A stretch of DNA of 64,000 nt from Muricea muricata (lineage: Eukaryota > Cnidaria > Anthozoa > Malacalcyonacea > Plexauridae), in contig OY979718.1 in assembly GCA_963855995.1 (NCBI GenBank), positions 47,775,559 through 47,839,558 of the forward strand. The letters are read 5' to 3'. The notes under the pieces were generated by a model. The model searched no databases. It saw nothing but the letters and a program-made list of their open reading frames with translations, and was not told the DNA's origin. Positions within the stretch are counted from its first letter, which is position 1. Each line of letters begins with the position of its first letter. Shown here piece after piece: positions 1,826-46,961 of this stretch. The translations under genes and the position numbers were made by a program.

Positions 1826-2027
1826 TTCAAGACTGTAGCTATCGATATTCCGGGCAGAAAACGAAGTTTTGATAAAGTCAATAAAGAGATTATAGCCCAG
1901 ACAACTATTTCAAATAGAGCCATATAAACACTATAGATGAACTGAAATTTGTGACTATATCGCAACCAGGTATATAATCTGACATAATAAGTGCTACTCT
2001 GGTTTTGTTAAATGAATGAAATGAAAT

Positions 2028-3026
2028 GTGTTTGAGGGCACTTATTACAAACAGGTTTTTGGAACAGCGATGGGCTCGCCGGTTTCGGCTGTCATTGCTA
2101 ATTTAGTAATGGAAGATATTGAACATAGAGCCCTAACAACGGCTCCGGTCAGCCCATCGTTCTGGAAGCGATTTGTTGATGATGTGATCTCTGCGGTTTC
2201 TCAAGATGAGATTGTTGTTCTTTTGCAACATTTGAATTCAATTGAGCCTTCTATACAGTTCACCGTAGAACGTGAGAAGTTGCCCTTTTTGGATACTTAT
2301 GTTAAGAGAACTACTGATGGGAAGTTGGAAACTGTTGTTTATCGTAAACCAACTCATACTGATAAATGTCTGTCATTTAACTCGCATCACCCGAGAAGCC
2401 ATAAAAGGTCTGTTGTTACAACTTTGTTTCAGAGAGCGGAGAATTTAACATCGAACAACGATGCTAGGGAAAACGAGTGTCAATATGTAACCAATATTCT
2501 GAAAGAAAACAATTATCCTAAGAGCAACTCTCCAGAGGGTGATTCCGCTGTGAAAGGTTTTGCAATAGTCCCGTACATTCAAGGGATTGCGGAACCAATC
2601 AGGAGAGTTCTTAATAATTGTGGTATCAAGGTTGCCCTGATACCCTTTCAGACATTGGGACATATTTTTGCGAAACCCAAGAATCGCGTTCCGACTGATC
2701 AGAAAACACATGCTGTATACTCTATACCATGCGGTGATTGCGAGAAAGTATATCTGGGTCAAACAAAACGCCAGTTTTGCACACGTCTGAAAGAACATCA
2801 AAGGGCCGTTTCTAATTTTAACAGCTCAAAATCAGCTTTGGCTGAACACGTGTGTGAAACAAGCCATAACATTGCGTGGGAAGACTCTAAAATCATCACC
2901 ACTAACAATCGTTATGGTCAAAGGCTTTGTTTGGAAGCCTGGCATATCAATGCCAGCCCTTGTGCCTTAAGTAGGGATGACGGAAGTCATTTACCACAAG
3001 AGTATTTACATCTTGTTGGTAGATGA
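2028..3026 (+). pseudogene. PLE polyprotein fragment: reverse transcriptase C-terminal half plus GIY-YIG endonuclease
   Basis: The open frame has 332 codons but begins with GTG and has no ATG at its start, because the element is truncated; a full PLE protein is usually well over twice this length. Visible RT motifs are FGTAMGSPVS (motif B type), RFVDDV (catalytic motif C, about residue 48) and KLPFLDTYV (motif D/E region, with YRKPTHTDK following). The C-terminal third contains YSIPCGDCEKVYLGQTKR and TRLKEHQRA, the GIY-YIG nuclease core with its preceding Cys pair, followed by AEHVCETSHNIAW. The encoded enzyme would nick target DNA and reverse transcribe from it. The frame has no internal stop, so truncation, not decay, is the main defect. 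Confidence 0.88.
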
Positions 3027-3071
3027 CGTCACCTTGACAGCATATAAGGTCGTGAGTTTCAACATCAGACA

Positions 3072-3114
3072 ACCCCTGATGAAGACACTAGACCGGAGTG
3101 TCGAAACGTTGGGT
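3072..3114 (+). ncRNA. Hammerhead-ribozyme-like motif of PLE type, helix III reduced
   Basis: Downstream of the PLE stop, CTGATGA (3076-3082) and GAAAC (3103-3107) flank a 5-bp helix II: GACAC (3084-3088) with GTGTC (3098-3102), loop of 9. ACCC immediately before CTGATGA can pair with GGGT (3111-3114) as helix I, putting the scissile site after GTT (3108-3110). Helix III would be only the self-complementary ACGT (3106-3109), too short to close in one molecule. Small hammerheads lacking a usable helix III, acting as dimers, are known from PLEs. One extra A (3083) between the core and helix II departs from the canonical core. Activity is inferred. Confidence 0.65.
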
Positions 3115-3650
3115 CGTGAATGTAATCTTTGTTCGGTGATTTCATTCATTTAACAAAACCAGAGTAGCACTTATTATGTCGGACTATAGATGGAGTTTAG
3201 ACAAAAATGTTATTGGAGCTAACGTTGCGTTGCTATTCGCAACATCTTCAGAGCATCATGAAATTATCTAATGTGTAGCTTCAATAAAATTTTTGTTTAA
3301 ACTTCATCTATAGTGTTTATATGGCTATTTACTATAATCTTTTTACAAAGCATGCGTTGCAACTTGCCAGTCCGTCGTGATCAAAAACAGGAAGTCGAAT
3401 GAGATGAGAAACTCGTGACTGTAGCCTGCGAATATTCGTAGGCTACAGAGGGCTACAGTATGTATACAGTATTCGCAAATTCGCAGGCTCAGGAGCTACT
3501 AATGATATAATAAGCTTAAAGTGGCCGCGGGGAAAAATAAGTCTTGCGCGAAAAAACAGACCGAAATTGGGACTCTAAATATAGCTTGAGTAATTAAAGG
3601 ATACTATTCAAGATCCGGTTACACTGGCCTTGACCTGATCATTTGAATAC

Positions 3651-3660: not shown

Positions 3661-4974
3661 GGCCACTACTAAAAAGCGATACAGCGATACAACGATACAG
3701 CGATACACGGAGCCGGAGCCGGAGCCTGGAGCCGGAGCCACGCATAAATTATTCAAATTAATTAATTATTTAATAAATTATTGCTTTCAATCACCACAGA
3801 AGACATTAGTTATTATATTTTCGGGGGGGGGGGGGGGGGGCGCATATACTTAAGAATACCTATTATAAAGTTAAAATGCGAAGACTTAATTAAATAGATT
3901 TAAATTCTAGCATATGCAAAACAATAATTTGGTATATTTCTTTCCATACTATGTGGTTGACAATAATATTCATATAGATTGTGGGTCACTTCAGACATTC
4001 AGACTAACAGAAATTCCTCCAATGCCCTACGTCGATCGGTGCTTTGTATTTCACTGTTGACAGTAATAGGCCTCGATTCACTTTAATGTTAAGGTATTAT
4101 AGTCTGGTGGATTTCAAAATACGTAAAATACCAGCTTGACGAAAAAGCAAAAGACACGCGATAAGTAAAAAAGATGCGTAATAAAGATGCTTGACCCCGG
4201 ATTATTGACCCCCAACTCTTTATTATAGCCACCCAAAGTTGAATGCTCAAACGCGTGACACGGTGACACGTTCGCCCCAATAAATGAATGAGCCTTCTAG
4301 AATCTAGAAAACTGCAAACAAAGCTTAAATTGGCAGCAACGTTGAACATGGAAGGAAATAGTTGGCAGAATTTGATCGCTGTTCCAACAATAATGAGCAT
4401 GATATGATTGTAGCTTATGAGAACCATAGCTAAAAGTTACCAATGATAGAGCTTAATTACATGTTATTTTTTGCTACGTTAAGAGCATAATTGTGTTAGC
4501 GGTTGGACGCTGGTGAAATTTTTATATGGTTAGATATAAAGATATCGATATCAGTTATGATTATATGACATGTGATTAAATAAAATAGAACGCTGTAACA
4601 TGAACGGAGATATATTTATGCCCCCATAAAGTGGAAAAGACGGAGTCTGTTTAAAAGTCACTGCCAAGTCTGGGGAAACACTTTACAGACAGACTCCGTT
4701 TTTTCCACTTTTAAGACGGAGTCTGTTTAAAAATCACCGCCAAGTCTAGAAACACACTTTACAGAGAGACTCCGTACTCCGTACTCCGCACTCCGTCTTT
4801 TCCACCATGCCACGCGATAAGGCAATGCTGACTAACAAAGTCGAGGGTTTGATGAGTATTTCCTTCCCCTCCCTTAGGTGTTTTTATAAGCGCATCATAA
4901 GTCAACACCACATGCACAAAATGCAGCATGGTTATCTAAAATTTACACTTTTCACGATAAGGACGTTTGTCGTT
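3661..4974 (+). repeat. Left arm of foldback element
   Basis: It contains, from outside in: GATACAGC-type short repeats, GGAGCC repeats, an AT-rich stretch, a homopolymer G run at about 3823-3840 (17-18 G here, shorter in the mirrored copies), and a hairpin module rich in GACGGAGTC at about 4618-4807. The difference in G-run length between arms is the main visible mismatch. Confidence 0.85.
4618..4809. repeat. GGAGTC hairpin module inside the left foldback arm (mirrored at about 6032-6225)
   Basis: The module opens with GTGGAAAAGACGGAGTCTG and closes with CCGTCTTTTCCACCATGCC, an inverted pair, with an internal repeat of the same palindrome. The same words build the free-standing 390-bp MITE at 59071-59460 (ends GACATGGTGGAAAAGAC and GTCTTTTCCACTATGCC). 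This module therefore appears to be a related MITE captured inside the foldback arm before the arm was duplicated. Confidence 0.65.
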
Positions 4975-5394
4975 TAAGCGAAAGAAATAATTAATTATAA
5001 ATTAGCCTTCGTGAGTGACGCTTGCGTGCTAAAGAATGCCATTGTGGGGAAACGCATATCATATTCGTGAAACGTTGTGGCAAACATATTTTGTGAGCGT
5101 GCGCACACTTTAATAAGAGGCACGACCACGACCTAGCGTGCTGGTAAAAGTTGAGAAGTCGCCTGTATATATGTAGTCAGTACACTGTACATGAATGAAT
5201 TACACTTGTACTCACAAAGCAAATTTACGAGTTTATGAAAATAACAGCAAGGAAAACACATATAATTTTTAACATCATATTGGGTTGTATATATAACTCC
5301 AGTTAATATTCTTGCGTTTAGAATTTAAAGCCATGATTGCTAAGTAAGTGAACGTGGGCCGGTTCGAAGTATGGTATCATATCATGGGGGACAA

Positions 5395-5870
5395 ACAAAC
5401 CCTCGACTTTATTAGTCAGCATTGCCTTATCGCGTGTCTTTTGCTTTTTCATCAAGCTGGCATTTTACGTATTTTGAAATCCACCAGACTATAATACCTT
5501 AAAGAATTTACACTTGAATTAATGTAACATTAAAGTGAATATCCACAGTTGCTCTTTTCACACCACGACTTCGTGCGAAGCCTATTACTGTCAACAGTGA
5601 AATACAAAGCGCCGATCGACGTAGGGCATTGGACGAATTAATATTTCTGTTAGTCTGAATGTCTGAAGTGACCCACGTCCCACAATCTATATGAATATTA
5701 TTGTCAACCACCTAGTATGGGAAGAAATATACCAAATTATTGTTTTGCATATGCTAGCATTTAAATCTATTTAATTAAGTCTTCGCATTTTAACTTTATA
5801 ATAGGTATTCTTAAGTATATGCGCCCCCCCCCCCGAAAATATAATTACTAATGTCTTCTGTGGTGAAAAC
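5395..5870 (+). repeat. Third, diverged copy of foldback arm sequence within the spacer
   Basis: This stretch runs in the same orientation as the right arm (about 6680-7045) and repeats it with small indels: for example GTCAGCATTGCCTTATCGCG, GACTATAATACCTTA, ACTGTCAACAGTGAAATACA and ATTCTTAAGTATATGCG all recur in order, ending in the homopolymer C run at about 5824. It differs by short insertions such as the AAGAATTTACACTTG block near 5504. The three copies show that arm modules have been shuffled within the element. Confidence 0.75.
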
Positions 5871-7167
5871 GACAAACGTCCTTATCGTGAAAAGTGTAAA
5901 TTTTAGATAACCATGCTGCATTTTGTGCATGTGGTGTTGACTTATGATGCGCTTATAAAAACACCTAAGGGAGGGGAAGGAAATACTCATCAAACCCTCG
6001 ACTTTGTTAGTCAGCATTGCCTTATCGCGTGGCATGGTGGAAAAGACGGAGTGCGGAGTACGGAGTACGGAGTCTCTCTGTAAAGTGTGTTTCTAGACTT
6101 GGCGGTGATTTTTAAACAGACTCCGTCTTAAAAGTGGAAAAAACGGAGTCTGTCTGTAAAGTGTTTCCCCAGACTTGGCAGTGACTTTTAAACAGACTCC
6201 GTCTTTTCCACTTTATGGGGGCATAAATATATCTCCGTTCATGTTACAGCGTTCTATTTTATTTAATCACATGTCATATAATCATAACTGATATCGATAT
6301 CTTTATATCTAACCATATAAAAATTTCACCAGCGTCCAACCGCTAACACAATTATGCTCTTAACGTAGCAAAAAATAACATGTAATTAAGCTCTATCATT
6401 GGTAACTTTTAGCTATGGTTCTCATAAGCTACAATCATATCATGCTCATTATTGTTGGAACAGCGATCAAATTTTGCCAACTATTTCCTTCCATGTTCAA
6501 CGTTGCTGCCAATTTAAGCTTTGTTTGCAGTTTTCTAGATTCTAGAAGGCTCATTCATTTATTGGGGCGAACGTGTCACCGTGTCACGCGTTTGAGCATT
6601 CAACTTTGGGTGGCTATAATAAAGAGTTGGGGGTCAATAATCCGGGGTCAAGCATCTTTATTACGCATCTTTTTTACTTATCGCGTGTCTTTTGCTTTTT
6701 CGTCAAGCTGGTATTTTACGTATTTTGAAATCCACCAGACTATAATACCTTAACATTAAAGTGAATCGAGGCCTATTACTGTCAACAGTGAAATACAAAG
6801 CACCGATCGACGTAGGGCATTGGAGGAATTTCTGTTAGTCTGAATGTCTGAAGTGACCCACAATCTATATGAATATTATTGTCAACCACATAGTATGGAA
6901 AGAAATATACCAAATTATTGTTTTGCATATGCTAGCATTTAAATCTATTTAATTAAGTCTTCGCATTTTAACTTTATAATAGGTATTCTTAAGTATATGC
7001 GCCCCCCCCCCGAAAATATAATAACTAATGTCTTCTGTGGTGATTGAAAGCAATAATTTATTAAATAATTAATTAATTTGAATAATTTATGCGTGGCTCC
7101 GGCTCCAGGCTCCGGCTCCGTGTATCGCTGTATCGTTGTATCGCTGTATCGCTTTTTAGTAGTGGCC
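5867..7167 (-). repeat. Right arm of foldback element
   Basis: Reverse complement of 3661-4974, near-identical apart from homopolymer length. It ends in CGCTTTTTAGTAGTGGCC directly before the TSD copy at 7168. Confidence 0.85.
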
Positions 7168-7378: not shown

Positions 7379-7867
7379 TCATACTTGTAAATTATTGCCA
7401 TCTTCAATTTTACCAAGAAATTTCAGGCACATGTAACTTGTTGATGACCCACTGGAAGGTTTAATTTCAAACACCGCCACTAAGTCAGTGGTTGGCGCTA
7501 ATGATGGCACTTTCAAGTCAATGGTCAGGACTTCATTTGCTTCAGCTGCCATAGGACAAGTGAGATTGTGACGCGAACATATATTAGGATCATCAAATGG
7601 GAATGGCAACTTCACGCTTCCTATGATTGCATGTAGAACAATTGTACCATTGGTAATTTTTTCTTCTGTGGTAAAACTGATTTTGCCGTAGTATGTATGG
7701 CCTTTAAAGAATATGCAAGGTTCAGGTACGCCTTCCTCACAATCGAGGTCCAAATTTGTCACAGTAACCGCCGTTGATCCACAGTCTGAAAATGGTACGG
7801 TGATTGCTTTCACGTAAACTCCAATACAAAAAACGAAGAACATCAAAACCACGCAAGAACGAGACAT
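7379..7867 (-). CDS. NPC2: NPC2-like sterol/lipid carrier (ML domain), single exon
   Basis: The predicted protein has 162 residues, starting at the ATG at 7867 (an upstream in-frame ATG at 7954 would add 29 residues and displace the signal peptide, so the inner start is preferred). A hydrophobic signal peptide (CVVLMFFVFCIGVYVKA) is followed by an ML domain: FSDCGSTA near the mature N-terminus, CEEGVPEPCIFFKGHTY, VPFPF-like LPFPFDDP, a paired CSRHNLTCP, and the closing CLKF. The six expected disulphide cysteines of the family can be placed. Family members bind cholesterol or other lipids in the lysosome lumen or outside the cell; NPC2 hands sterol to NPC1. Length and cysteine pattern fit NPC2, though a paralogous ML-domain secreted protein is possible. 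No intron interrupts the coding region, unusual beside the intron-rich neighbours. Two NxT sequons (NGT, NLT) are visible. Confidence 0.85.
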   Translation of the reverse strand: MSRSCVVLMFFVFCIGVYVKAITVPFSDCGSTAVTVTNLDLDCEEGVPEPCIFFKGHTYYGKISFTTEEKITNGTIVLHAIIGSVKLPFPFDDPNICSRHNLTCPMAAEANEVLTIDLKVPSLAPTTDLVAVFEIKPSSGSSTSYMCLKFLGKIEDGNNLQV

Positions 7868-8273
7868 CCTGAAAGTGTTTGTTACGCTTGCGGCTTGTCC
7901 TACTGCGTACCGAGAAATGAGCTTGCAAGTAAAAGGAATACAGGATAGTTTCACTGACCTTTGATTTGCCTTTGATCACGCCACTCGTGACGTAAATAGA
8001 AATGCAAATATTATGCGCCATGTACAATGTGCTACTATACAAATAGTCAAGTACTAATAAATATGAGTACCCATATGTGACTCAGACATGTAAACTCAGT
8101 GTGAGTGCGCAAGGGATGATGGATTATTGCTTATTTTTACCTCTAAACTCAGAATTATTTCTTTCAAACAGCTTCGAGGACACATAGGAAACTTACGAAG
8201 GCAAATTTACTTACCGAGTATCAGCGCCTTAAAAAACAGTAATCGATCATCCCTTGACCCTTGCGCGTTCATA

Positions 8274-12638: not shown

Positions 12639-14140
12639 AACTTGCCTTGTTTAGTAACTTGCCTTGTTTAGTAACTTGGCTTGTTTAGTAACTTGCCTTG
12701 TTTTGTAACTTACCTTGTTTAGTGACTTGCCTTGTTTAGTAACTTGCCTTGTTTAGTAACTTACCTTGTTTAGTAACTTGCCTTGTTTAGTAACTTGCCT
12801 TGTTTAGTAACTTGCCTTGTTTAGTAACTTACCTTGTTTAGTAACTTGCCTTGTTTAGTAACTTGCCTTGTTTAGTAACTTGCCTTGTTTAGTAACTTGC
12901 CTTGTTTAGTAACTTGCCTTGTTTAGTAACTTGCCTTGTTTAGTAACTTGCCTTGTTTAGTAACTTGCCTTGTTTAGTAACTTGCCTTGTTTAGTAACTT
13001 GGCTTGTTTAGTAACTTGCCTTGTTTAGTAACTTGCCTTGTTTAGTAACTTGCCTTGTTTAGTAACTTACCTTGTTTAGTAACTTGCCTTGTTTAGTAAC
13101 TTGCCTTGTTTAGTAACTTGCCTTGTTTAGTAACTTGCCTTGTTTAGTAACTTGCCTTGTTTAGTAACTTGCCTTGTTTAGTAACTTGCCTTGTTTAGTA
13201 ACTTGCCTTGTTTAGTAACTTGCCTTGTTTAGTAACTTGCCTTGTTTAGTAACTTGGCTTGTTTAGTAACTTGGCTTGTTTAGTAACTTGCCTTGTTTAG
13301 TAACTTGCCTTGTTTAGTAACTTACCTTGTTTAGTAACTTGCCTTGTTTAGTAACTTGCCTTGTTTAGTAACTTGCCTTGTTTAGTAACTTGCCTTGTTT
13401 AGTAACTTGCCTTGTTTAGTAACTTGGCTTGTTTAGTAACTTGCCTTGTTTAGTAACTTGCCTTGTTTAGTAACTTGCCTTGTTTAGTAACTTGCCTTGT
13501 TTAGTAACTTGGCTTGTTTAGTAACTTGGCTTGTTTAGTAACTTGCCTTGTTTAGTAACTTGCCTTGTTTAGTAACTTACCTTGTTTAGTAACTTGCCTT
13601 GTTTAGTAACTTGCCTTGTTTAGTAACTTGCCTTGTTTAGTAACTTGCCTTGTTTAGTAACTTACCTTGTTTAGTAACTTGGCTTGTTTAGTAACTTGCC
13701 TTGTTTAGTAACTTACCTTGTTTAGTAACTTGCCTTGTTTAGTAACTTGGCTTGTTTAGTAACTTGCCTTGTTTAGTAACTTACCTTGTTTAGTAACTTG
13801 CCTTGTTTAGTAACTTACCTTGTTTAGTAACTTGCCTTGTTTAGTAACTTGGCTTGTTTAGTAACTTGGCTTGTTTAGTAACTTGCCTTGTTTAGTAACT
13901 TACCTTGTTTTGTAACTTGCCTTGTTTCGTAACTTGGCTTGTTTAGTAACTTGCCTTGTTTAGTAACTTGGCTTGTTTAGTAACTTGCCTTGTTTAGTAA
14001 CTTACCTTGTTTAGTAACTTGGCTTGTTTAGTAACTTACCTTGTTTAGTAACTTACCTTGTTTAGTAACTTGCCTTGTTTAGTAACTTGCCTTGTTTAGT
14101 AACTTGCCTTGTTTAGTAACTTACCTTGTTTAGTAACTTG
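12639..14140. repeat. Minisatellite, 17-bp unit AACTTGCCTTGTTTAGT, about 88 copies
   Basis: The unit repeats without break for about 1.5 kb. Nearly all variation is at two neighbouring positions in the CTTGCC word, giving three main variants: TTGCC (commonest), TTGGC and TTACC; a few units also read TTTTGT, TTTCGT or TTTAGTG. Both edges contain GCAATGCA-type sequence (TACGCAATGCAACTTGCC on the left, AACTTGCAATGCACTT on the right), suggesting the array grew inside a preexisting sequence. No reading frame is maintained. Confidence 0.95.
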
Positions 14141-15622
14141 CAATGCACTTCAGGCTTAAGCTCAATCAGATGTTATTTGAAATGCAGTGCTAAAAATCGT
14201 GAGGTTCACATTCTGCTTTATAGTTCTGACAGTAACTGTATAAAGTATCGTCTTTAAGAGCTGAATTACAACAGAAATGCTGGGAAAACGTCTGCCAGAG
14301 GACCATACTTGTAGCTTCTTCCGACTACTGTTCACATAACATCAGCCTAAGTCAGAATGCCTTTGCAAGTTGAAAGAGAAGTTGCAGCATGTAACAGCAC
14401 TATAATAGACCTTCTTGAGAAAATACACGGTCAAACATGTTACAGTCAAACAATTGTATTGTTATATAAATTATATTGTAAACGATTATATTGTTGTGGA
14501 TTTATATTAGTTTAACAGATTAGTTACACAGGACAAGTTCTGAAGCCTACCTAATGGACGCAGAGTATTTTTATTTGCTCTTAGATTTTCTTTCCTTTAA
14601 AACTCAGTTTGATTTCTTGTATTATGTAAAATTGTCATTAGATTGAAATACGAGTAAAAATATATGATGGTTGGTTCCAGGCAGAGACTAGGATACAGAC
14701 ATTAGATGGTACAGACATTAAATTTGAAGTTAATAAAACAAAGCTATAGAAGTTACTGTCGATGACCTGCTAAAATGTATTCACACTGCCTCGTTCCCAG
14801 TCGCTTTTTATGTATATAGCTCGAAGTAGAACTGGCCAATCATGTGATGTCAGATCTAAAGATATATTACTATAGGTAGAATTAATCTGGCAACCATTCA
14901 TGGAAATGTAGGGGAACAATAAGACGATATTGATGTATAAGGTTGCGAGTGGTGAATACCTAGAAAACATCTCAAACTTGCATGTTCGTCGTAAAAAATG
15001 ATGCTGATTATAATTTACGCAATATCTTGGTGATCTGAAAACACGGAAAAGAACTGGCACTAGTTGTCAAATAGAAATCCATTTTTAGAGCCAAACTAGC
15101 GAATTTTTCATCAAGTATAATTTACTTCGGTTCCAAATTTCTGGTGGACTTATAATTTTCTTTACTGAACATGATTACAAAGTTTCAACAAGTTTCATGA
15201 AAGAAAACAAAAGATATAAGTGATTAACAACAGCAAAATTGATTTTTATTTGGTGGTTAGTTCCAGGCCTTTTACTCACGGTCAGATCAGCTAGATGATA
15301 ATGTCGATTTGAAAAGCCAAGAACAAGTTTTTTTAAAAAAGACAGTTATTTTGGTGCAAAATGTGGAATGAGCTACCAACCGATCTGAAGGGCAAGAGTT
15401 TGTCTCAAGTATAAAGCGTCTTTGCTGAAGGGCTACCGTTGTTTTTAAAAAAGATTAAATGATCCAAAAGTAACAACAATAATGGTAATAACAATAATTT
15501 AAGCTTCATTAAATTATTTTCTATTTGGGGTACAAGCAATTGTAAATCTTGTTATTAAGGCAATTTACAACCGGCTACTTGAAATCATGACTCTAGTAAC
15601 TAAAGTAAACAAGAATACATAT
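14141..15622. other. Intergenic stretch, one possible LINE tail
   Basis: No host gene is supported. At 15361-15455 the plus-strand frame reads MWNELPTDLKGKSLSQV followed by a stop and a further hydrophobic/basic stretch; WNxLPxxL words are common in the C-terminal part of non-LTR reverse transcriptase ORFs, so this may be a small LINE relic. Evidence is one short match only. Confidence 0.3.
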
Positions 15623-36845: not shown

Positions 36846-39800
36846 ATGGCGAGGTCGAGTGAAGCAGAGAGACAGATTGTTTTGATAAATAGCGAACATG
36901 TAGTACTACAAACGTGCCTTGTTTGTGATGACATAGCGACTGGAAGGCATTATGGCGTTATTTCTTGCGAGGGATGTAAAGGGTTTTTCAAAAGAAGTAT
37001 AAGAAGAGACATGCGTTATACTTGCCGTAGCGGAGGTGATTGCCCGATCGATAGATCGCAGAGGAATCGTTGTCGGCTTTGTCGACTTAATAAATGCTTA
37101 AAAATGGGTATGAAGAAAAGTGGTAAGTTTTTTTTATAAATAACTGATTGAATTGACCTTCGTTAACATTGAACCATTTCTTGTGGTTAATAAAAGTTAG
37201 CGCAGTCCAAATATGCAAAGTTTTAGTCGGCTTTCTTATCATCCAATATGGTCTAAATATTTTAATAAGCACAAGGGAACCAACAAGGGTAACTTCAAAT
37301 ACTGAAAAGTGAAAACATTTTTTAAATCCAGCCAAAACGTACGAATAAAAACGTTTTCTTTTGTTAAGAATGGACTGTTTCGTTTATTTTGTGAAAAGCA
37401 GTTCACATAATATCTGGACTCATCCCAGTAGCTTTTAAAACCACCCATACCTCTAAAAATTGTGTAGTATTGATATATGGATCACAGTAATAGAGAAATT
37501 TTATTTTAAAACTCATCATCCACTGTTTTAGTATTTCAGGGTGATTATGTAACATCATCACAAATATAGGACTGTTCATTTTTTGAGGGGTGGGTGGGTG
37601 GGTTTATTTTTAAATTTTTAATTTTCCTGTCTCTTGCTCACTAATGATCATTCCAAAAACTTCAGGTCCCCGTTTTGATAGCAACAATTTTTTTAACCTC
37701 CCACCTTGAGAAATAACTATGAAATTTTAAATAAACAGTACCATAAATGGTTTGTTGCAATTATATTTCAAAAATGCATTTCTCTAAGACACCGCAACTC
37801 TGTTGCTTCGAGTTGTTGTTAGAAGCATGTGACTATCAGATGATGAGAAATCTCCTTCTGAGCTTTGTACTTCCACTTCATCTTCAGTGGTTTCTATTTA
37901 TCCTCTCACCACCTCTTCTCCATAACTCTCATTACTACTACTATCTGTGACTGGCTTTGCAATTTGTCCTTGTTTTGAAGCAACCAAAGGCAGTGTTTCT
38001 GCACTTTAGGAAACATGACAGATGATGCATTTTACTTTATCTGGCTTTCTGCCTCTAAGCAACAAACTTAAGCAACACTAAAAATCAAGCAATGCCTGCC
38101 TAGTTGTGAGTAGAGATAGTTGTATTCCAGCAAACCCACCTTACGTTTCTGTACTTATTCCTAATCCACATTCACCAAGACTGACATACTATACGGTATG
38201 AAATCATGCTGATCCTTTACACTGAAACTTTTAGTGTAGAAAGATGTCGACATTATTTAATTACTCAAAGGAGATAGATATGATAATAGCAATTTGATTT
38301 CTGGATTCACTTTTACTGATAATATTGTCAACAATGAGTCAGGTGATCACAGTGGACCAAGGCAAAATGTTATTAGACATCAAAGTGTGCCTAGCAACCT
38401 CAAAAGTTGTGATGTAAATCACTGTAGTAACACTATTTCAACACTAGGGAACAGATTCTCAGAAGGTGAGAAAATTAAAAATTAATTGCTAGAAGAAAGG
38501 AAAACCTGTTATTCACTCGACATGAATGTTCTCCCTGGGGGAAACAACACCCTGCAGTTGAAGCACTTATCTGTAAAGGCAAATGAAGTTTACAATTACT
38601 ATGCATGAAGTTTGATAAGACGTCTGCTGAGAAATCTGAACAAGGAAGAAACAAAGAAAAAAGAACAAAACAAAACAAAAAGAAAAGACAAAAACGACAG
38701 AGGAACCTAGAGAAACATACCATAAACTTACTGTCAGTTATTTTAATTGGGCCTCCAAGCATTTTGAGCCATTTATAACAAAAGACTCTTTAAATCATAG
38801 CAACTTGAATTCAGATTCCTTAAAACCAAGATTTCACCGCAAGACCATAAAACAATTTCTTGAAAAGGGTGTGTTTGCAGAGGAAAGCATGAAGTCTTTC
38901 ATGTTAAGACTAGTTTCAAAAAAAGGAAGAAAGCCGAAAAGAATGGTGAAAAAAGATGAAAACGAGCAAGATTAGCGCTCAACCTGCTTTGCCTTCTTAC
39001 TTCAATAAGCCAGCTAGAGATACATGCAAAGATGATCAGGGATGCAGCACTGACTCATCATGGTGTCAGGACAGTAGCAATAAATAGTTACAAAAAAACA
39101 GTGAAAGCTGACATTTGTGATTTATGAGGAAGGATATCTTTATCTTAAATATGGACCAGTTTACCACTCAACCTTAGCTTCCTCACACACTAGTCCACTA
39201 CTCGCTTCAATATATCCGATCAACCCTGTGCGATCTTTGTAAATCTTTAACCTTCTGATCATCCTACTACAACAGAATAATTGGCAGTTTGTTGTGATCA
39301 ATCATTCTGATTGGCTTTTATTTTACTTTTATAAAACATGCCTATATCAACCCTTGTAAAGATCCTATGTTGTTGTGTGTTTTATATAAAATGTTTTTTA
39401 TTTCAGCTGTTCAAGTAGAGAGATGTCGGCCAGCAGTGAAAGATGATGAGTTGGCATCATTAGGCCCATTTAAGTCAAAATTAGTTGAGAAGTGTGATTT
39501 TGGCTTCAATATGGAGTTCCCTGAAGACAAGAAACTGACTATGGAATATGTTTACGAACTTGCTACCCGTCTTCTCTTTCATTCAATTGATTGGGTTAGA
39601 TTTGCTCATTCTTTCAAAACATTGAATCGAAGTGACCAAATTATCCTTTTGCGAAATTGCTGGACTGACATTTTCCTGCTAGGCTTTGTTCAATGTTCTA
39701 AAGTCTGTCCCTTAGAGGCTACATTAAGTTTGATGAAACAGAATATAGAGAAAGTTGGCAATGAAATAGAAAAAACGGAAGTAGTTCAAGTGGAGCACAT

Positions 39801-40959
39801 TTATAAAGTTAAAGATTTGCTTCTAACATTAGAGAGACTGGAATTAACAGCAACAGAATTTGCCTTGTTAAAACTTATATGTCTTTTCAATCCTGGTATG
39901 TCATTCACTCTTTGTTTTTTTAATCGCGCATTAGAAATGTCACATTTTGGTAATAATTCCATGTTCTCAGTATGGCAAATATAAATCTTAATCCAAACCC
40001 TAACCAACGTTTTGGATTGAAGATTTAAAGATTTCATTAGATTTAGGCTTGGATTAAGATTTAATTTCGCGTACTGAGAACATGGAATTATTACCCGTAT
40101 TTTAGTGTTCGTCATTAAAGTGGCGAATACGAGTTTCGGCTTGACGACTCATTTCCATGCACCAAAATGACAATCGTATCGTGAAGGATGGCCTTGATTG
40201 CAGAGACGTAAATAGAGCGGTAATTGCACGAGGGGGAGGGGGAGGGGGTGTTAAATTCATATATTCGTGTTCTGCCCGACGAAGATCTTCAGGCTGAATG
40301 CTAATATATGCACACCCCCGGCCCAATTAACGCTATAGTTAGTCCCTGCTTAATTTTTACACGGAAATGCGGTGACTTACTTTTACCCAAACGCAGGACA
40401 AAAGTACACTTTACATTAAGACTTAATATGTATTTATAGTGATGTAATTATATACCCAGTCAGTAATTGATATAATTGATATTTATAAATAGATTATATT
40501 TGTTAAATAGTTAATTATATCATAATAGGGAGTTGTTTGCGAGATGCGTGCGAGGCCACACTAAATACGCTAATAGAGACAAAATCCGGAAATATTATAG
40601 TATTTTAGTTAAACATTTTAAATTCTAAATTTAACTTTGAACAGTATAGTTACATGTCCAAGTAGATTGTATTATTTTGTTTTCTAATTATATAGTTCTT
40701 TCTAGACGTTTCAGGTTTGAGTGGTGTACATGAAGTGGAGCAAATGCAAGAAATTGCTCAAAGTGAACTTCAGGAATTTGTCAAGGAGAGTCCGTGGTCA
40801 AACCAAAGTCGTTTTGCCAAAATTTTGCTACGACTTCCTGCAATAAAAACAATCAGCTCGATGAAAGTCGAAGAAATGTTTTTTTCTCCTCTTATAGGAG
40901 AAGTAAAAATTGATCACATCCTACCAACGATATTAAACAACGCAAATAGTCAACAGTAG
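36846..40959 (+). CDS. NR2C: Nuclear receptor, NR2C (TR2/TR4) type, three coding exons
   Basis: Exons 36846-37122, 39407-39895 and 40706-40959 join in phase (1, 1) to 339 residues. Residues ~19-92 are the two-zinc-finger DNA-binding domain: [18 protein letters not shown], then P-box [11 protein letters not shown], second finger with [20 protein letters not shown] and [11 protein letters not shown]. The P-box EGCKG predicts binding of AGGTCA-type half-sites. The ligand-binding domain has [40 protein letters not shown], and the last exon [26 protein letters not shown] and [16 protein letters not shown], all in TR2/TR4 order. A hinge of only about 30-40 residues and an almost absent N-terminal domain make it shorter than the roughly 600-residue vertebrate TR2/TR4. 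An activation-helix motif of the usual LLxEM type is not seen, consistent with repressor-biased orphan receptors. It acts in the nucleus. Confidence 0.9.
38060..38975 (+). other. Coding-like segments without a gene model in the nuclear receptor intron
   Basis: Within the 2.3-kb intron, the plus strand holds stop-free segments with protein-like texture: around 38090-38180 ([20 protein letters not shown]), 38294-38485 ([20 protein letters not shown]) and 38640-38975 (111 codons with no initial [43 protein letters not shown], ending in a Lys/Arg-rich tail). They lie in different frames. They could be alternatively spliced or decayed hinge exons of the receptor, since vertebrate TR2/TR4 hinges are much longer, or a dead retrosequence. 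I recognise no family. Confidence 0.3.
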
Positions 40960-41601: not shown

Positions 41602-42088
41602 TTGTTTATTTCTATTTTAGTTTTGTTTTTGTTAAGTTTTAGCTAATATTTACTGTAGCCAGAGTCAAATCATCATGAAACTTGTTGAGTCAATGCGGCC
41701 GTGTCACGATCATGATTTAAAAACAACAAAAAAAACCTTTAAATTTTTGTACTAGTGTCTTGTTTTTACCGAATCCAGATGCAGAAACGGTCCATGATAA
41801 ACATGTACCAAATTATATGACCTTAGGTGTAGTAGAATTGACATAGCTCGGATTTGAAAACCCAGCAATTGAGTACAAAAATGTTCTCACCTTGAATTGG
41901 CTCCTCGCTCGTTCAAAATCATTATAATTCGTGAACTCCGGTCGAAATATATGAGAATACAAGTTGTATGGCTTTACCTGAATGTGCTTTGGACCACAAT
42001 TCAACCCCAGGGTACCCCTGAAAGTAAAATGTGTCATGTCGCTATCTCTATAGCAACGCGTTTTCATAATGCACCTGTGGCTTTTTTA
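41602..42088 (+). repeat. Left inverted arm (DIRS ITR plus flank)
   Basis: Mirror of 46475-46961 with very few mismatches. It includes GGTCGAAATATATGAGAATA and AAAGTAAAATGTGTCATGTC. The portion outside about 41925 is not repeated in the internal complementary region and may be flank, not element. Confidence 0.75.
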
Positions 42089-42218
42089 CCTTGTGCTTCA
42101 GACGTAAATCGGGTAAGTTTTTTAGCTTGTGTATTTTTTCGTATTTTTATCACCTTTTTAGGTCGATTGTTCGTTATCCGACTTCGTTCCTTACTTCTGA
42201 CCGTATTTAAGGTCAACA

Positions 42219-43400: not shown

Positions 43401-45408
43401 CTTCAGATCCGGAGGTTCTAGCTATTGTGAAGGGTTTCAATATCCCTTTTCGTCAAATTCCTTACCAAAAATTTCAACCAATAACAAGGACACCTCAAGG
43501 GGTGCAACCAATTTTAGATATGGAAATACGAAACTTATTAGCAAAGGGGGCAATCACCCAGACACCACTTTCGAAGGACGGCTATTACAGCCGAATTTTC
43601 CTTGTTCCGAAGAAGGGCGGCGGTATGCGTCCAGTTATCGACCTAAGCTCCCTGAACAACTTTGTGGAACACTTCCATAGTCAACACTTGCAAATGGAAA
43701 TGAAGCTTCCAAATGAAGCCAACACTTCCAAATGGAAAATCTGAGCTCAATCAAAACCTTGCTCAAGCAGGGAGACTTCATGACGAAACTGGATCTGAAA
43801 GACGCATACTTGACAATAGCAATGAACCCTCAATCGCAGAAGTTTCTTCGTTTCATTTGGAAAGGCAAAGCATATCAATTCAAAGCCCTTCCATTTGGCC
43901 TGAACGTAGCGCCTCTAGTGTTTACCAAACTATTAAAACCAATCGCAGCATTTTTAAGAAAACAAGACATTCGTCTTATCCTGTATTTAGACGATATGCT
44001 AATTATCGGCTCCTCTGCTCAAGAGACAATGCAGTTTACTCAAATAGCGATGAACTTGCTTGCCTCTCTGGGGTTCACTATTCACAAGGAGAAATCATTA
44101 ACAACTCCAACTCAAATCATCACCTTTCTGGGATTCACCATCAAATCTATCACAAGACAAATAAGCCTGCCCCCAGAGAAAGTAACAAAAACCTTGATAC
44201 TTTGCCGCCAAATTTTGACAGCAGAGACGGTATCTCTTCGGTCGCTTGCCCAACTTCTTGGGCTGCTGAAGTCTCACCGCCCAGCCATCTGGAAAGCTCC
44301 TCTACATTTTCGCCACCTGCAAGCACAATTAATTCAGGACTTGCAGAAACACAACCACCAATACAACGTCTGCACCCCCCTAACACGGGCTTCCAAAACG
44401 GAATTAACATGGTGGCTGACAAACCTGCAGCAAGTAAATGGCAGCCAAATGGTGCCAACACCTCCAGATATAATAATATTCACGGATGCTTCAAAAAAGG
44501 GTTGGAGTGCGATTTGCAACAACGTCAGAACGAACGGCAAATGGTCTTTTCAGGAGGTCCAGTTACATATAAATCTTTTGGAATTGAAAGGGGCATTATT
44601 AGCGGTGCAATCTCTACTGAAGAACCATCGCCACGTGACAGCCAGTCTGAATATGGACAACTCAACGGCTGTCTCGTATATCAATCACAAGGGAGGAACA
44701 CGCTCCCCGGAACTCACCCAGATAACACTAGAACTCTGGAACTGGTGCATACAGGGGGACATTTATCTGGTTGCACACCATGTCCCCGGGAAATCAAATG
44801 TCCTAGCAGACCAAGAATTAAGGGTATTTCAAGACGACACAGACTGGAAGCTAGACCCTCAAGTGATCAAACCCTTTCTGTCTCAATGCAGGACAGACCT
44901 CTTTGCAACCAGACTGACTTGTCAGCTCAAGCAGTACATCAGCTGGCGACCAGACCCGAAGGCTGTCCACACCGATGCTCTAAATGTGAACTGGCATGCC
45001 CTCAAGGGATATGCTTTCCCTCCATTCAACTTGCTGCCTGTTGTCCTAAACAAAGTTCTAGCAGACCAGACCGAGCTAGTCCTTGTTGCCCCAGTATGGC
45101 AAGCACAGCCATGGTGGCCACTCCTCTTAAGTCTTCTAACTCAAGAACCGGTGCTTCTTCCAAACAAGAAATATCTTCTGATAAACCCGAGCAACCCAGA
45201 CCAGGTCCACCCAATGTACCCACGCCTCCATCTAGCCGTGTATCATGTCTCATCCAACGCTACGAAACAGAAGGATTTTCTAAAGACGTTGCCAACCTAC
45301 TCGTCGCAGCAACTCGTTCCTCCACATCTAAGACATACGAATCCAGCTGGCGTCGTTGGTGCGGCTGGTGTTCTGAAAGGAAGATTAATCCGCTTTCAGC
45401 AATTCTAA
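43345..45408 (+). pseudogene. DIRS reverse transcriptase / RNase H, frameshifted by a 38-bp duplication
   Basis: The RT opens around KQWETITSDPEVLAIVKG and reaches YYSRIFLVPKKGGGMRPVID. The frame is lost at about 43690-43735, where CACTT(G/C)CAAATGGA occurs twice 38 bp apart; a 38-bp duplication shifts the frame. Downstream the new frame continues MTKLDLKDAYLTIAMNP, ALPFGLNVAPLVFTKLL and catalytic LILYLDDMLIIG. RNase H follows: IIIFTDASKKGWSAICN, INLLELKGALLAVQSL, SLNMDNSTAVSYINHKGG (D, E, D residues) and HHVPGKSNVLAD. A DIRS-typical tail (DLFATRLTCQLKQYISW, HALKGYAFPPFNLLP) extends to 45408. Only one lesion is visible. Confidence 0.8.
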
Positions 45409-46220
45409 CAAACATCCTTTCATTTTTTGCGGACTGCTTCAAGGAAGGTCTTCAATATCGGACCATAAATGTCTTACGTTCTGCTCTATCATCTATTCAT
45501 TCTAAGGTTGACAATTTTTGTGTTGGACAACACCCCTATGTTGTAAACATTTTGAGAGGGATCTTGAATAATAGACCTCCTAAACCACGATACACATACA
45601 CGTGGGACCTACACGCAGTCACAGAACATATAAAAAAAATGGGGACAAATAATTCACTGTCCCTAAAACACTTGAGCTGGAAGCTTGCAACTCTATTTGC
45701 CATAACATGTCCAAAACGGGTTTCCTCACTTACCAGTTTAAATTTAAACTACTACAAAATGGTACCTGAAGGTGTCGTGTTTACTCTTACCGTGCCAACA
45801 AAGGGAACTCGCCCAGACGAAACAATTCAAGCCTTCTTCACCCGCTATCCTGCTGATCCATATTTGTGCCCAGTACATTGTTTTACACACTATCTGCTAC
45901 TCACAAAAGAAAAACGAGCTGTTCAAGAAGGAAAACCAAATAATTTATTCATTTCCCATATCAAACCTCACCACCCGATTACGAAAGCGACACTTGCTAG
46001 TTGGATCCTGTCCCTTATTAAAGAGGCAGGCATTGACACAAAAATTTTTAAAGCTCATTCCTTAAGAGTTGCCTCTACTACAGTAGCTGCTAATGCCTTT
46101 GTCCCCCCTCTTCAAGAGATTATGAACATGGCTGACTGGTCCAATGTCTCTACGTTTCGTCAACATTACTATAAACCTGTTCATTCCTCCACCTTTGGAG
46201 AAACTGTACTTAGTTCCTAG
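45096..46220 (+). CDS. DIRS tyrosine recombinase (YR), intact frame
   Basis: The frame overlaps the end of the RT/RNase H frame by about 310 bp in another phase, as is usual in DIRS elements. The ATG at 45096 (MASTAMVATPLKSSNSRTG) is a reasonable start giving 374 residues; the frame is open much further upstream only as a shadow of RT. A SAM-like N-terminal core (SKTYESSWRRWCGWC, PLSAILTNILSFFADCF) is followed by the catalytic domain: first Arg in ITCPKRVSSLTSLN, the HxxR box in FKAHSLRVASTT, and the nucleophile in TFRQHYYKP. The enzyme is believed to insert the circular cDNA by site-specific recombination. No stop or frameshift interrupts it. Confidence 0.85.
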   Translation: MASTAMVATPLKSSNSRTGASSKQEISSDKPEQPRPGPPNVPTPPSSRVSCLIQRYETEGFSKDVANLLVAATRSSTSKTYESSWRRWCGWCSERKINPLSAILTNILSFFADCFKEGLQYRTINVLRSALSSIHSKVDNFCVGQHPYVVNILRGILNNRPPKPRYTYTWDLHAVTEHIKKMGTNNSLSLKHLSWKLATLFAITCPKRVSSLTSLNLNYYKMVPEGVVFTLTVPTKGTRPDETIQAFFTRYPADPYLCPVHCFTHYLLLTKEKRAVQEGKPNNLFISHIKPHHPITKATLASWILSLIKEAGIDTKIFKAHSLRVASTTVAANAFVPPLQEIMNMADWSNVSTFRQHYYKPVHSSTFGETVLSS

Positions 46221-46474
46221 TTGATATTGTATTTTTAATGTTGATATATTTTGATCACAATACATAATACATGTATGTTTTTGTACTACATGGTGTTGAA
46301 TTCTACCACTTGTATTCTCATATATTTCGACCGGAGTTCACGAAATATAATGCCAATTATACGAGGGCTGATAAGCCCGCTGATATAATTGGGGTTATAT
46401 GAGTGAACGAAGGGAGAAATATATGAGCCCACCCGAACTACTCGTTCTCCCATCCCCTTTTCCTTGTTTTGGCG

Positions 46475-46961
46475 TTAAAAAGCCACAGGTGCATTATGGG
46501 AACGCGTTGCTATAGAGATAGCGACATGACACATTTTACTTTCAGGGGTACACTGGGGTTGAATTGTGGTCCGAAGCACATTCAGGTAAAGCCATACAAC
46601 TTGTATTCTCATATATTTCGACCGGAGTTCACGAAGTATAATGATTTTGAACGAGCGAGGAGCCAATTCAAGGTAAGAACATTTTTGTACTCAATTGCTG
46701 GGTTTTCAAATCCGAGCTATGTCAATTCTACTACACCTAAGGTCATATAATTTGGTACATGTTTATCATGGACCGTTTCTGCATCTGGATTCGGTAAAAA
46801 CAAGACACTAGTACAAAAATTTAAAGGTTTTTTTTGTTGTTTTTAAATCATGATCGTGACACGGCCGCATTGACTCAACAAGTTTCATGATGATTTGACT
46901 CTGGCTACAGTAAATATTAGCTAAAACTTAACAAAAACAAAACTAAAATAGAAATAAACAA
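46475..46961 (-). repeat. Right inverted arm (DIRS ITR plus flank)
   Basis: Reverse complement of 41602-42088. The sequence ATGATTTTGAACGAGCGAGG marks the presumed element/flank boundary near 46641. Confidence 0.75.

What the first reader, a model, noticed from the sequence alone, without database searches (positions are those of the whole stretch)
3072..3114. Penelope-like element ends in a hammerhead variant whose helix III is only self-complementary ACGT
Directly read: CTGATGA, 5-bp helix II, GAAAC, and GTT before a strand that can pair as helix I. Helix III cannot close in one RNA, so cleavage would need two molecules. Established: PLEs carry hammerheads, and small variants that act as dimers are known. 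Inference: this copy would cleave at GTT. The extra A before helix II and the 4-bp helix I are departures that could weaken it.
Basis: partly seen in the sequence, partly recalled or inferred. Interest (0 to 1): 0.7.

Follow-up and report, generated by a model that had tools for sequence, protein, structure and literature searches.

The report
Retroelement tail with minimal hammerhead ribozyme
A short, probably self-cutting RNA motif sits near the end of a broken copy of an animal retroelement; the motif is real and recurs beside related elements in the same genome, but elements of this kind are already known to carry it.

Summary
The motif is real: a complete type I hammerhead core with helix I of 4 bp, one extra A, helix II of 6 bp (not 5), loopless ACGT as helix III and a GTT triplet, 45 bases after a 5'-truncated Penelope-like ORF. 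The genome has 823 matches to CTGATGAN{8,20}GAAACGTY, against 11 for the reversed pattern. The 30 loci fetched with it fall into several families whose different helices still pair: 87.5% of cells, 24-43% when slid. The extra A is no local defect: 80 of 82 listed matches with helix II of 3 bp or more have one extra A or T. The mechanism is known in outline: PLE hammerheads without helix III that act as dimers (cited title and reviews) or with their protein (PMC11167929). The element does not end at the ribozyme: most copies run about 40-50 or 74-84 nt beyond 3138, so I infer that their templates were uncut here. Cleavage and dimerisation were not tested; predicted energy does not favour helix III. 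Verdict: an ordinary new member of a known kind.

The parts
1930..1941 (.). left target-site duplication (ACTATAGATGAA)
   Evidence: 10 identical bases (12 with one mismatch) repeated directly at 3183-3194
1940..2022 (-). inverted long tail (about 84 nt) of the element, left end of the insertion
   Evidence: the same tail follows the ribozyme in genome copies
2025..3026 (+). 5'-truncated PLE ORF: reverse transcriptase remnant and GIY-YIG endonuclease region
   Evidence: RVT_1 E 4.8e-4 and GIY-YIG E 0.1 for the whole ORF; 1.2e-4 and 0.026 for the pieces; all below Pfam's own cut-offs
3072..3075 (+). hammerhead helix I, 5' strand ACCC (3069-3070 can add two pairs beyond a mismatch)
   Evidence: covaries across families
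3076..3082 (+). catalytic core CTGATGA
3083..3083 (+). extra A before helix II
   Evidence: extra A or T in 80 of 82 listed genome matches with helix II of 3 bp or more
3084..3102 (+). helix II: GACACT / AGTGTC, 6 bp, loop AGACCGG
3103..3106 (+). core GAAA
3106..3109 (+). helix III ACGT, loopless and self-complementary
   Evidence: direct reading; invariant in the 9 chosen rows of A1
3110..3110 (+). predicted cleavage after this T (GTT triplet)
   Evidence: inferred from the hammerhead consensus; not assayed
3111..3114 (+). helix I, 3' strand GGGT
3115..3182 (+). sequence after the ribozyme, with the short tail that ends the insertion
   Evidence: shorter of two common ends
3183..3194 (.). right target-site duplication (ACTATAGATGGA)

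Best explanation
This is a minimal type I hammerhead ribozyme at the 3' end of a 5'-truncated Penelope-like element. Helices I and II form in one RNA. ACGU has no loop, so it could close only as a 4-bp helix between two copies (two transcripts, or two units of one tandem transcript), or the core is held by the element's protein. Cleavage would fall after U3110 and would trim or separate unit-length RNAs. Shown here: anatomy, covariation across families, PLE-type ORFs upstream of part of the copies, insertion ends beyond the cleavage site. Inferred: cleavage, dimerisation, role, and that templates of copies which keep the ribozyme and its tail had not been cut at this site. The odds given here and for the rivals are not exclusive; this one is mainly for identity and family.
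For: One structured match in the window, 0 in 300 Markov sequences. 823 genome matches against 11 for the reversed pattern. Over 36 distinct rows from the window and L096-L145, 87.5% of 288 cells pair, against 24.0-42.9% with partners slid by 1 to 3 columns; further pair types 21 against 8-15. For 15 representatives 75.8% against 26.7-42.5%, and helix I pairing was reached in 0 of 2000 shuffles of the 3' strands. PLE-type ORF upstream on the same strand in 15 of 30 loci, same strand downstream in 0 of 30, with five queries of which four came from these upstream regions; with the window's protein alone 7 of 30 upstream and 0 of 30 downstream at E up to 0.01. Reviews: PLE hammerheads usually lack helix III (PMC6155905, PMC7761336, passages) and are named among double hammerheads (PMC6466107, passage).
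Against: No cleavage data. The predicted minimum-energy monomer fold keeps helices I and II but also pairs core bases 3078-3081 with 3107-3110, which would block the core. Adding helix III to the dimer gains nothing in nearest-neighbour energy (-26.3 with it, -26.6 without), and the best dimer fold, -37.7, is a different long duplex. Pairs with a two-sided change are 7 of 8, but 4 to 6 of 8 also when slid, so that measure alone is weak. Ten of 33 distinct rows have helix I under 3 bp and ten have helix II under 4 bp. 15 of 30 loci showed no PLE-type ORF upstream on the same strand, among them the four loci centred on the GTTGC/GCGAC family. The Anolis ribozyme was inactive without protein, and its mutants still inserted in vitro (PMC11167929).
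Confidence: 0.88

Rival explanations
1. The ribozyme of this family works as a protein-assisted monomer: the PLE protein holds the core and no dimer is needed.
For: Anolis PLE (PAc): RNA cleavage only when protein was added, and unaffected by endonuclease mutants (PMC11167929). Helices I and II are in the predicted monomer fold, and helix III adds no dimer energy.
Against: The same paper notes self-cleavage of PLE hammerheads at 3-25 mM Mg in earlier work. ACGT is self-complementary, as dimers would need; but the search pattern fixed ACGT, so its constancy among matches is no evidence.
Confidence: 0.35
2. The motif is a fossil: this copy is 5'-truncated and the ribozyme is inactive or unused here.
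For: The copy is truncated. Mutated cores exist in the family, such as the L097 minus-strand copy. The lowest-energy monomer fold pairs core bases.
Against: Core intact in the window. Of 41 other matches to 3020-3180, 40 are 98-99% identical and one 91%, so the family looks young.
Confidence: 0.4
3. Chance hammerhead-like pattern.
For: The 47 pattern matches in viral contigs look like chance; 7 of 47 even had helix II of 4 bp or more.
Confidence: 0.01

Closest known systems
Small hammerhead variants of Penelope-like elements that cleave as dimers (Lunse, Weinberg, Breaker 2017; Cervera and de la Pena 2014)
   Same: PLE association, minimal type I core, no proper helix III. The two papers are not held; seen as cited titles and through reviews.
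   Different: Whether they describe the extra A or T before helix II could not be checked.
PAc, Poseidon element of Anolis carolinensis (PMC11167929, main-text section read)
   Same: Hammerhead with helices I and II only; insertion ends at two RT start sites, which gives the tail.
   Different: PAc's ORF starts at stem II. Here an ATG lies inside the core (3079-3081), but its frame stops after 24 codons, at 3151-3153 (read).
Chrysanthemum chlorotic mottle viroid plus-strand hammerhead (PMC3705267, passages)
   Same: One extra A between A9 and the first pair of helix II.
   Different: A plant viroid ribozyme, not a retroelement.
Metazoan retrozymes and newt satellite hammerheads (PMC7229834, passages)
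   Same: Type I, weak helix III; dimeric action in amphibians.
   Different: Short non-coding tandem repeats; here a coding element precedes the motif.

Membership tests
Hammerhead ribozyme, type I | CUGANGA and GAAA core with helix II between | tested here: met
   one extra base before helix II
Hammerhead ribozyme, type I | helix I open, with NUH before its 3' strand | tested here: met
   ACCC/GGGT, GTT
Hammerhead ribozyme, type I | compensatory changes in helices I and II | tested here: met
   across families; none within the window's own family
Hammerhead ribozyme, type I | closed helix III in one RNA | tested here: not met
   ACGT without a loop; reviews describe this for PLE hammerheads
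Hammerhead ribozyme, type I | self-cleavage | not testable with these tools
   no assay
Small PLE hammerhead acting as dimer | association with a PLE ORF | tested here: met
   window and 15 of 30 loci; 7 of 30 with the window's protein alone
Small PLE hammerhead acting as dimer | helix III self-complementary between two copies | tested here: inconclusive
   ACGT is self-complementary by reading, but it adds no predicted dimer energy
Small PLE hammerhead acting as dimer | rate depends on RNA concentration | not testable with these tools
   no assay
Penelope-like element | telomerase-like RT with GIY-YIG endonuclease | tested here: inconclusive
   weak Pfam hits in the expected order, below cut-offs; motifs AMGSP, FVDD and CGDC..YLGQT recognised from recall; copy is 5'-truncated
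Penelope-like element | inverted terminal repeats with optional tail and short target duplications | tested here: met
   11 of 11 hand-chosen copies (of 21 held) have a direct repeat of 8-15 bp, one shorter end (39-52 nt of tail matched) and one longer end (76-84 nt); 0 of 110 mismatched flank pairs reach 8 bp
Retrozyme | short non-coding tandem repeat around the ribozyme | tested here: not met
   no same-strand second copy seen beside the ribozyme in the window or the 20 fetched regions; coding element upstream

The most novel reading that the evidence does not exclude
In this animal genome PLE hammerheads carry, as a rule, a one-nucleotide insertion (A or U) between A9 and helix II, kept across several diverged PLE families. 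It would be a functional core variant tuned for loopless, dimeric or protein-held ribozymes, rather than noise.
Probability: 0.25. Interest if true: 0.45.

Novelty: new member of a known kind. Interest (0 to 1): 0.27.

Why it matters
It shows, within one genome, PLE-linked hammerheads that keep their fold while both helices change. Among the listed matches a core insertion known from a viroid is the rule. Insertion ends beyond the cleavage site suggest that templates were not cut at the 3' ribozyme, which bears on the open question of what PLE ribozymes are for.

Tried and rejected
Rfam scans gave no hammerhead. Viral-contig scans gave no match or no relative. Two further pattern scans listed 47 and 50 stretches; those were checked for helix II and look like chance (7 of 47 with 4 bp or more); those were not checked. 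Six bacterial genome matches had helix II of at most 4 bp. Covariation inside the window's family: none to count. Idea that two ribozyme families sit on opposite strands of one element: rejected, because those loci are related segments over 90% alike. Not achieved: a genome count of helix III forms other than ACGT (search busy), a second pattern, and a predicted structure of the endonuclease piece (interrupted; tool off).

Counts and controls: the pattern fixed CTGATGA, GAAACGT and Y; only the helices and the extra base were free. One search listed 100 of 823 matches. One search used those 100 (46 distinct) and compared offsets 0 and 1 only: 47 with an extra A, 33 with an extra T, 2 without, 18 with no helix II of 3 bp; 33 distinct rows of 67; helix I of 3 bp or more in 23 of 33, against 150 of 890 cross-partners; helix II of 4 bp or more in 23 of 33, against 6.3% of shuffles. 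One search assumed one extra base for every row. Some rows and loci are copies of one another, not independent.

Full report
Observation. The sequence at 3072-3114 is as described, with corrections. Helix I is ACCC/GGGT, plus two pairs beyond one mismatch; the core is CTGATGA; one extra A follows at 3083; helix II is GACACT/AGTGTC, 6 bp with a 7-base loop; then GAAA, ACGT sharing its A with GAAA, and GTT ending at 3110. A scripted scan finds this one structured match in the 64 kb and none in 300 first-order Markov sequences when a helix III of 2 bp or more is asked. With helix III free, 6000 Markov sequences gave 11 matches with helix II of 6 bp or more and helix I of 4 bp or more. Rfam finds no hammerhead here.

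Surroundings. The ORF 2025-3026 shows weak RVT_1 and GIY-YIG matches in PLE order, below Pfam's cut-offs. The window lies in a 453 Mb genome, where a search with 3020-3180 listed 42 matches: the window itself, 40 at 98-99% and one at 91%; only 40 of 510 candidates were scored, so this is a lower bound. Of 20 fetched regions, 12 carry two ribozyme copies in opposite orientation, the minus-strand copy to the left. The 33 ribozyme copies in the window and these regions have tails that match the window's 84-nt inverted tail for 74-84 nt (17), 39-52 nt (13), 60 nt (1) or not at all (2) (sequences). Eleven hand-chosen copies (of 21 held) were tested for target duplications: 11 of 11 have a direct repeat of 8-15 bp, one shorter end (39-52 nt) and one longer end (76-84 nt), while 0 of 110 mismatched flank pairs reach 8 bp. 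In the window the repeat is ACTATAGATG, 1930-1939 and 3183-3192. So the arms 1940-2022 and 3139-3182 are the element's own tails, and the insertion spans about 1940-3182. Published PLEs have inverted pLTRs, an optional tail at one of them and short target duplications (PMC3846280, passages), and two RT start sites that define the tail (PMC11167929, main-text section).

Covariation. Within the window's own family the ribozyme hardly varies: 33 copies, 15 distinct, no pair with a two-sided change. The pattern CTGATGAN{8,20}GAAACGTY gave 823 matches in the genome, against 11 for the reversed pattern; 100 were listed. The 30 loci given with it include these families: ACCC..GACACT/AGTGTC..GGGT (the window's); ATTC..GACT/AGTC..GAAT; TTTC or AATC..GACTA/TAGTC..GAAA or GATT; CTCA..GCC/GGC..TGAG; AGCT..GTTGC/GCGAC..AGC; and TATC..GATA in L142. 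Not every row folds: 10 of 33 distinct rows have helix I under 3 bp and 10 have helix II under 4 bp. Counting four pairs of each helix over 36 distinct rows from the window and L096-L145, 87.5% of 288 cells pair, against 24.0-42.9% with partners slid by 1 to 3; further pair types are 21 against 8-15; pairs with a two-sided change are 7 of 8 against 4-6 of 8, so that last measure alone is weak. With 15 representatives the paired share is 75.8% against 26.7-42.5%, and helix I pairing was reached in none of 2000 shuffles. Some rows come from related segments. The core and ACGT were fixed by the pattern, so their constancy proves nothing. A covariance model of the window's family alone finds members of other families, from E 1.6e-6 upward.

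PLE association. With the window's protein as query, 7 of 30 loci have a match upstream on the ribozyme's strand (two of them, L129 and L134, only at E 0.007-0.009) and none downstream on that strand. With four more proteins taken from upstream of ribozymes as queries, own locus excluded, 15 of 30 have one upstream on the same strand (L121 only at E 0.001) and 0 of 30 downstream on the same strand; 4 of 30 have one downstream on the opposite strand. Since four of five queries came from upstream regions, the second comparison leans towards upstream. The four loci centred on the GTTGC/GCGAC family had none upstream.

The extra base. Of 100 listed matches, 82 have helix II of 3 bp or more; 47 have one extra A, 33 one extra T, 2 none. 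A viroid hammerhead has an extra A at the same place; a review says that it causes a moderate decrease of the trans-cleaving rate and that U there raises it 3-4-fold (PMC3705267, passage). Whether the PLE papers report the extra base could not be checked; one literature search for such an insertion in retrotransposon hammerheads listed five papers, none on PLEs by title.

Mechanism. The hammerhead fold of the monomer scores -12.5 to -14.0 kcal/mol. The minimum, -14.6, keeps helices I and II but also pairs core bases 3078-3081 with 3107-3110. The dimer scores -26.3 with helix III and -26.6 without, and the best dimer fold is a different duplex at -37.7. So energy alone does not argue for the active dimer. 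Dimer action rests on literature: reviews say that PLE hammerheads usually lack helix III and may cleave as dimers (PMC6155905, PMC7761336, PMC6466107; passages). In Anolis the PLE ribozyme cleaved only with protein, and ribozyme mutants still inserted (PMC11167929). The copies here fit that last point: most retain the site and the tail beyond it, from which I infer that their templates were not cut there.

Verdict. A real but ordinary member of a known class. Left open: whether the extra A/U matters, and whether helix III acts between molecules.

Noticed in passing
window 3661-4999 and 5840-7167: 1.34 kb inverted repeat, 98% identical
   Followed up: no
window 12639-14141: long tandem repeat array, seen in the self-comparison
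   Followed up: no
window 43704-46220: reverse-transcriptase ORF (PF00078, E 5e-23) overlapping a second long ORF without a Pfam match, between inverted repeats 41602-42089 and 46474-46961; resembles a DIRS element (recall)
   Followed up: partly
window 39298-39984 and 7379-7975: nuclear receptor ligand-binding domain and an ML-domain protein; suggests an animal genome
   Followed up: partly
G000:C1:15090110-15121667: six degenerate hammerhead motifs on one strand, about 3.5-11 kb apart
   Followed up: no
L129, L130, L133, L134: related segments over 90% alike; in L133 and L134 two ribozymes of different families face each other about 1 kb apart
   Followed up: partly
window 3079-3153: ATG inside the ribozyme core opens a 24-codon frame ending in TAA (read; the same frame in copies)
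   Followed up: partly
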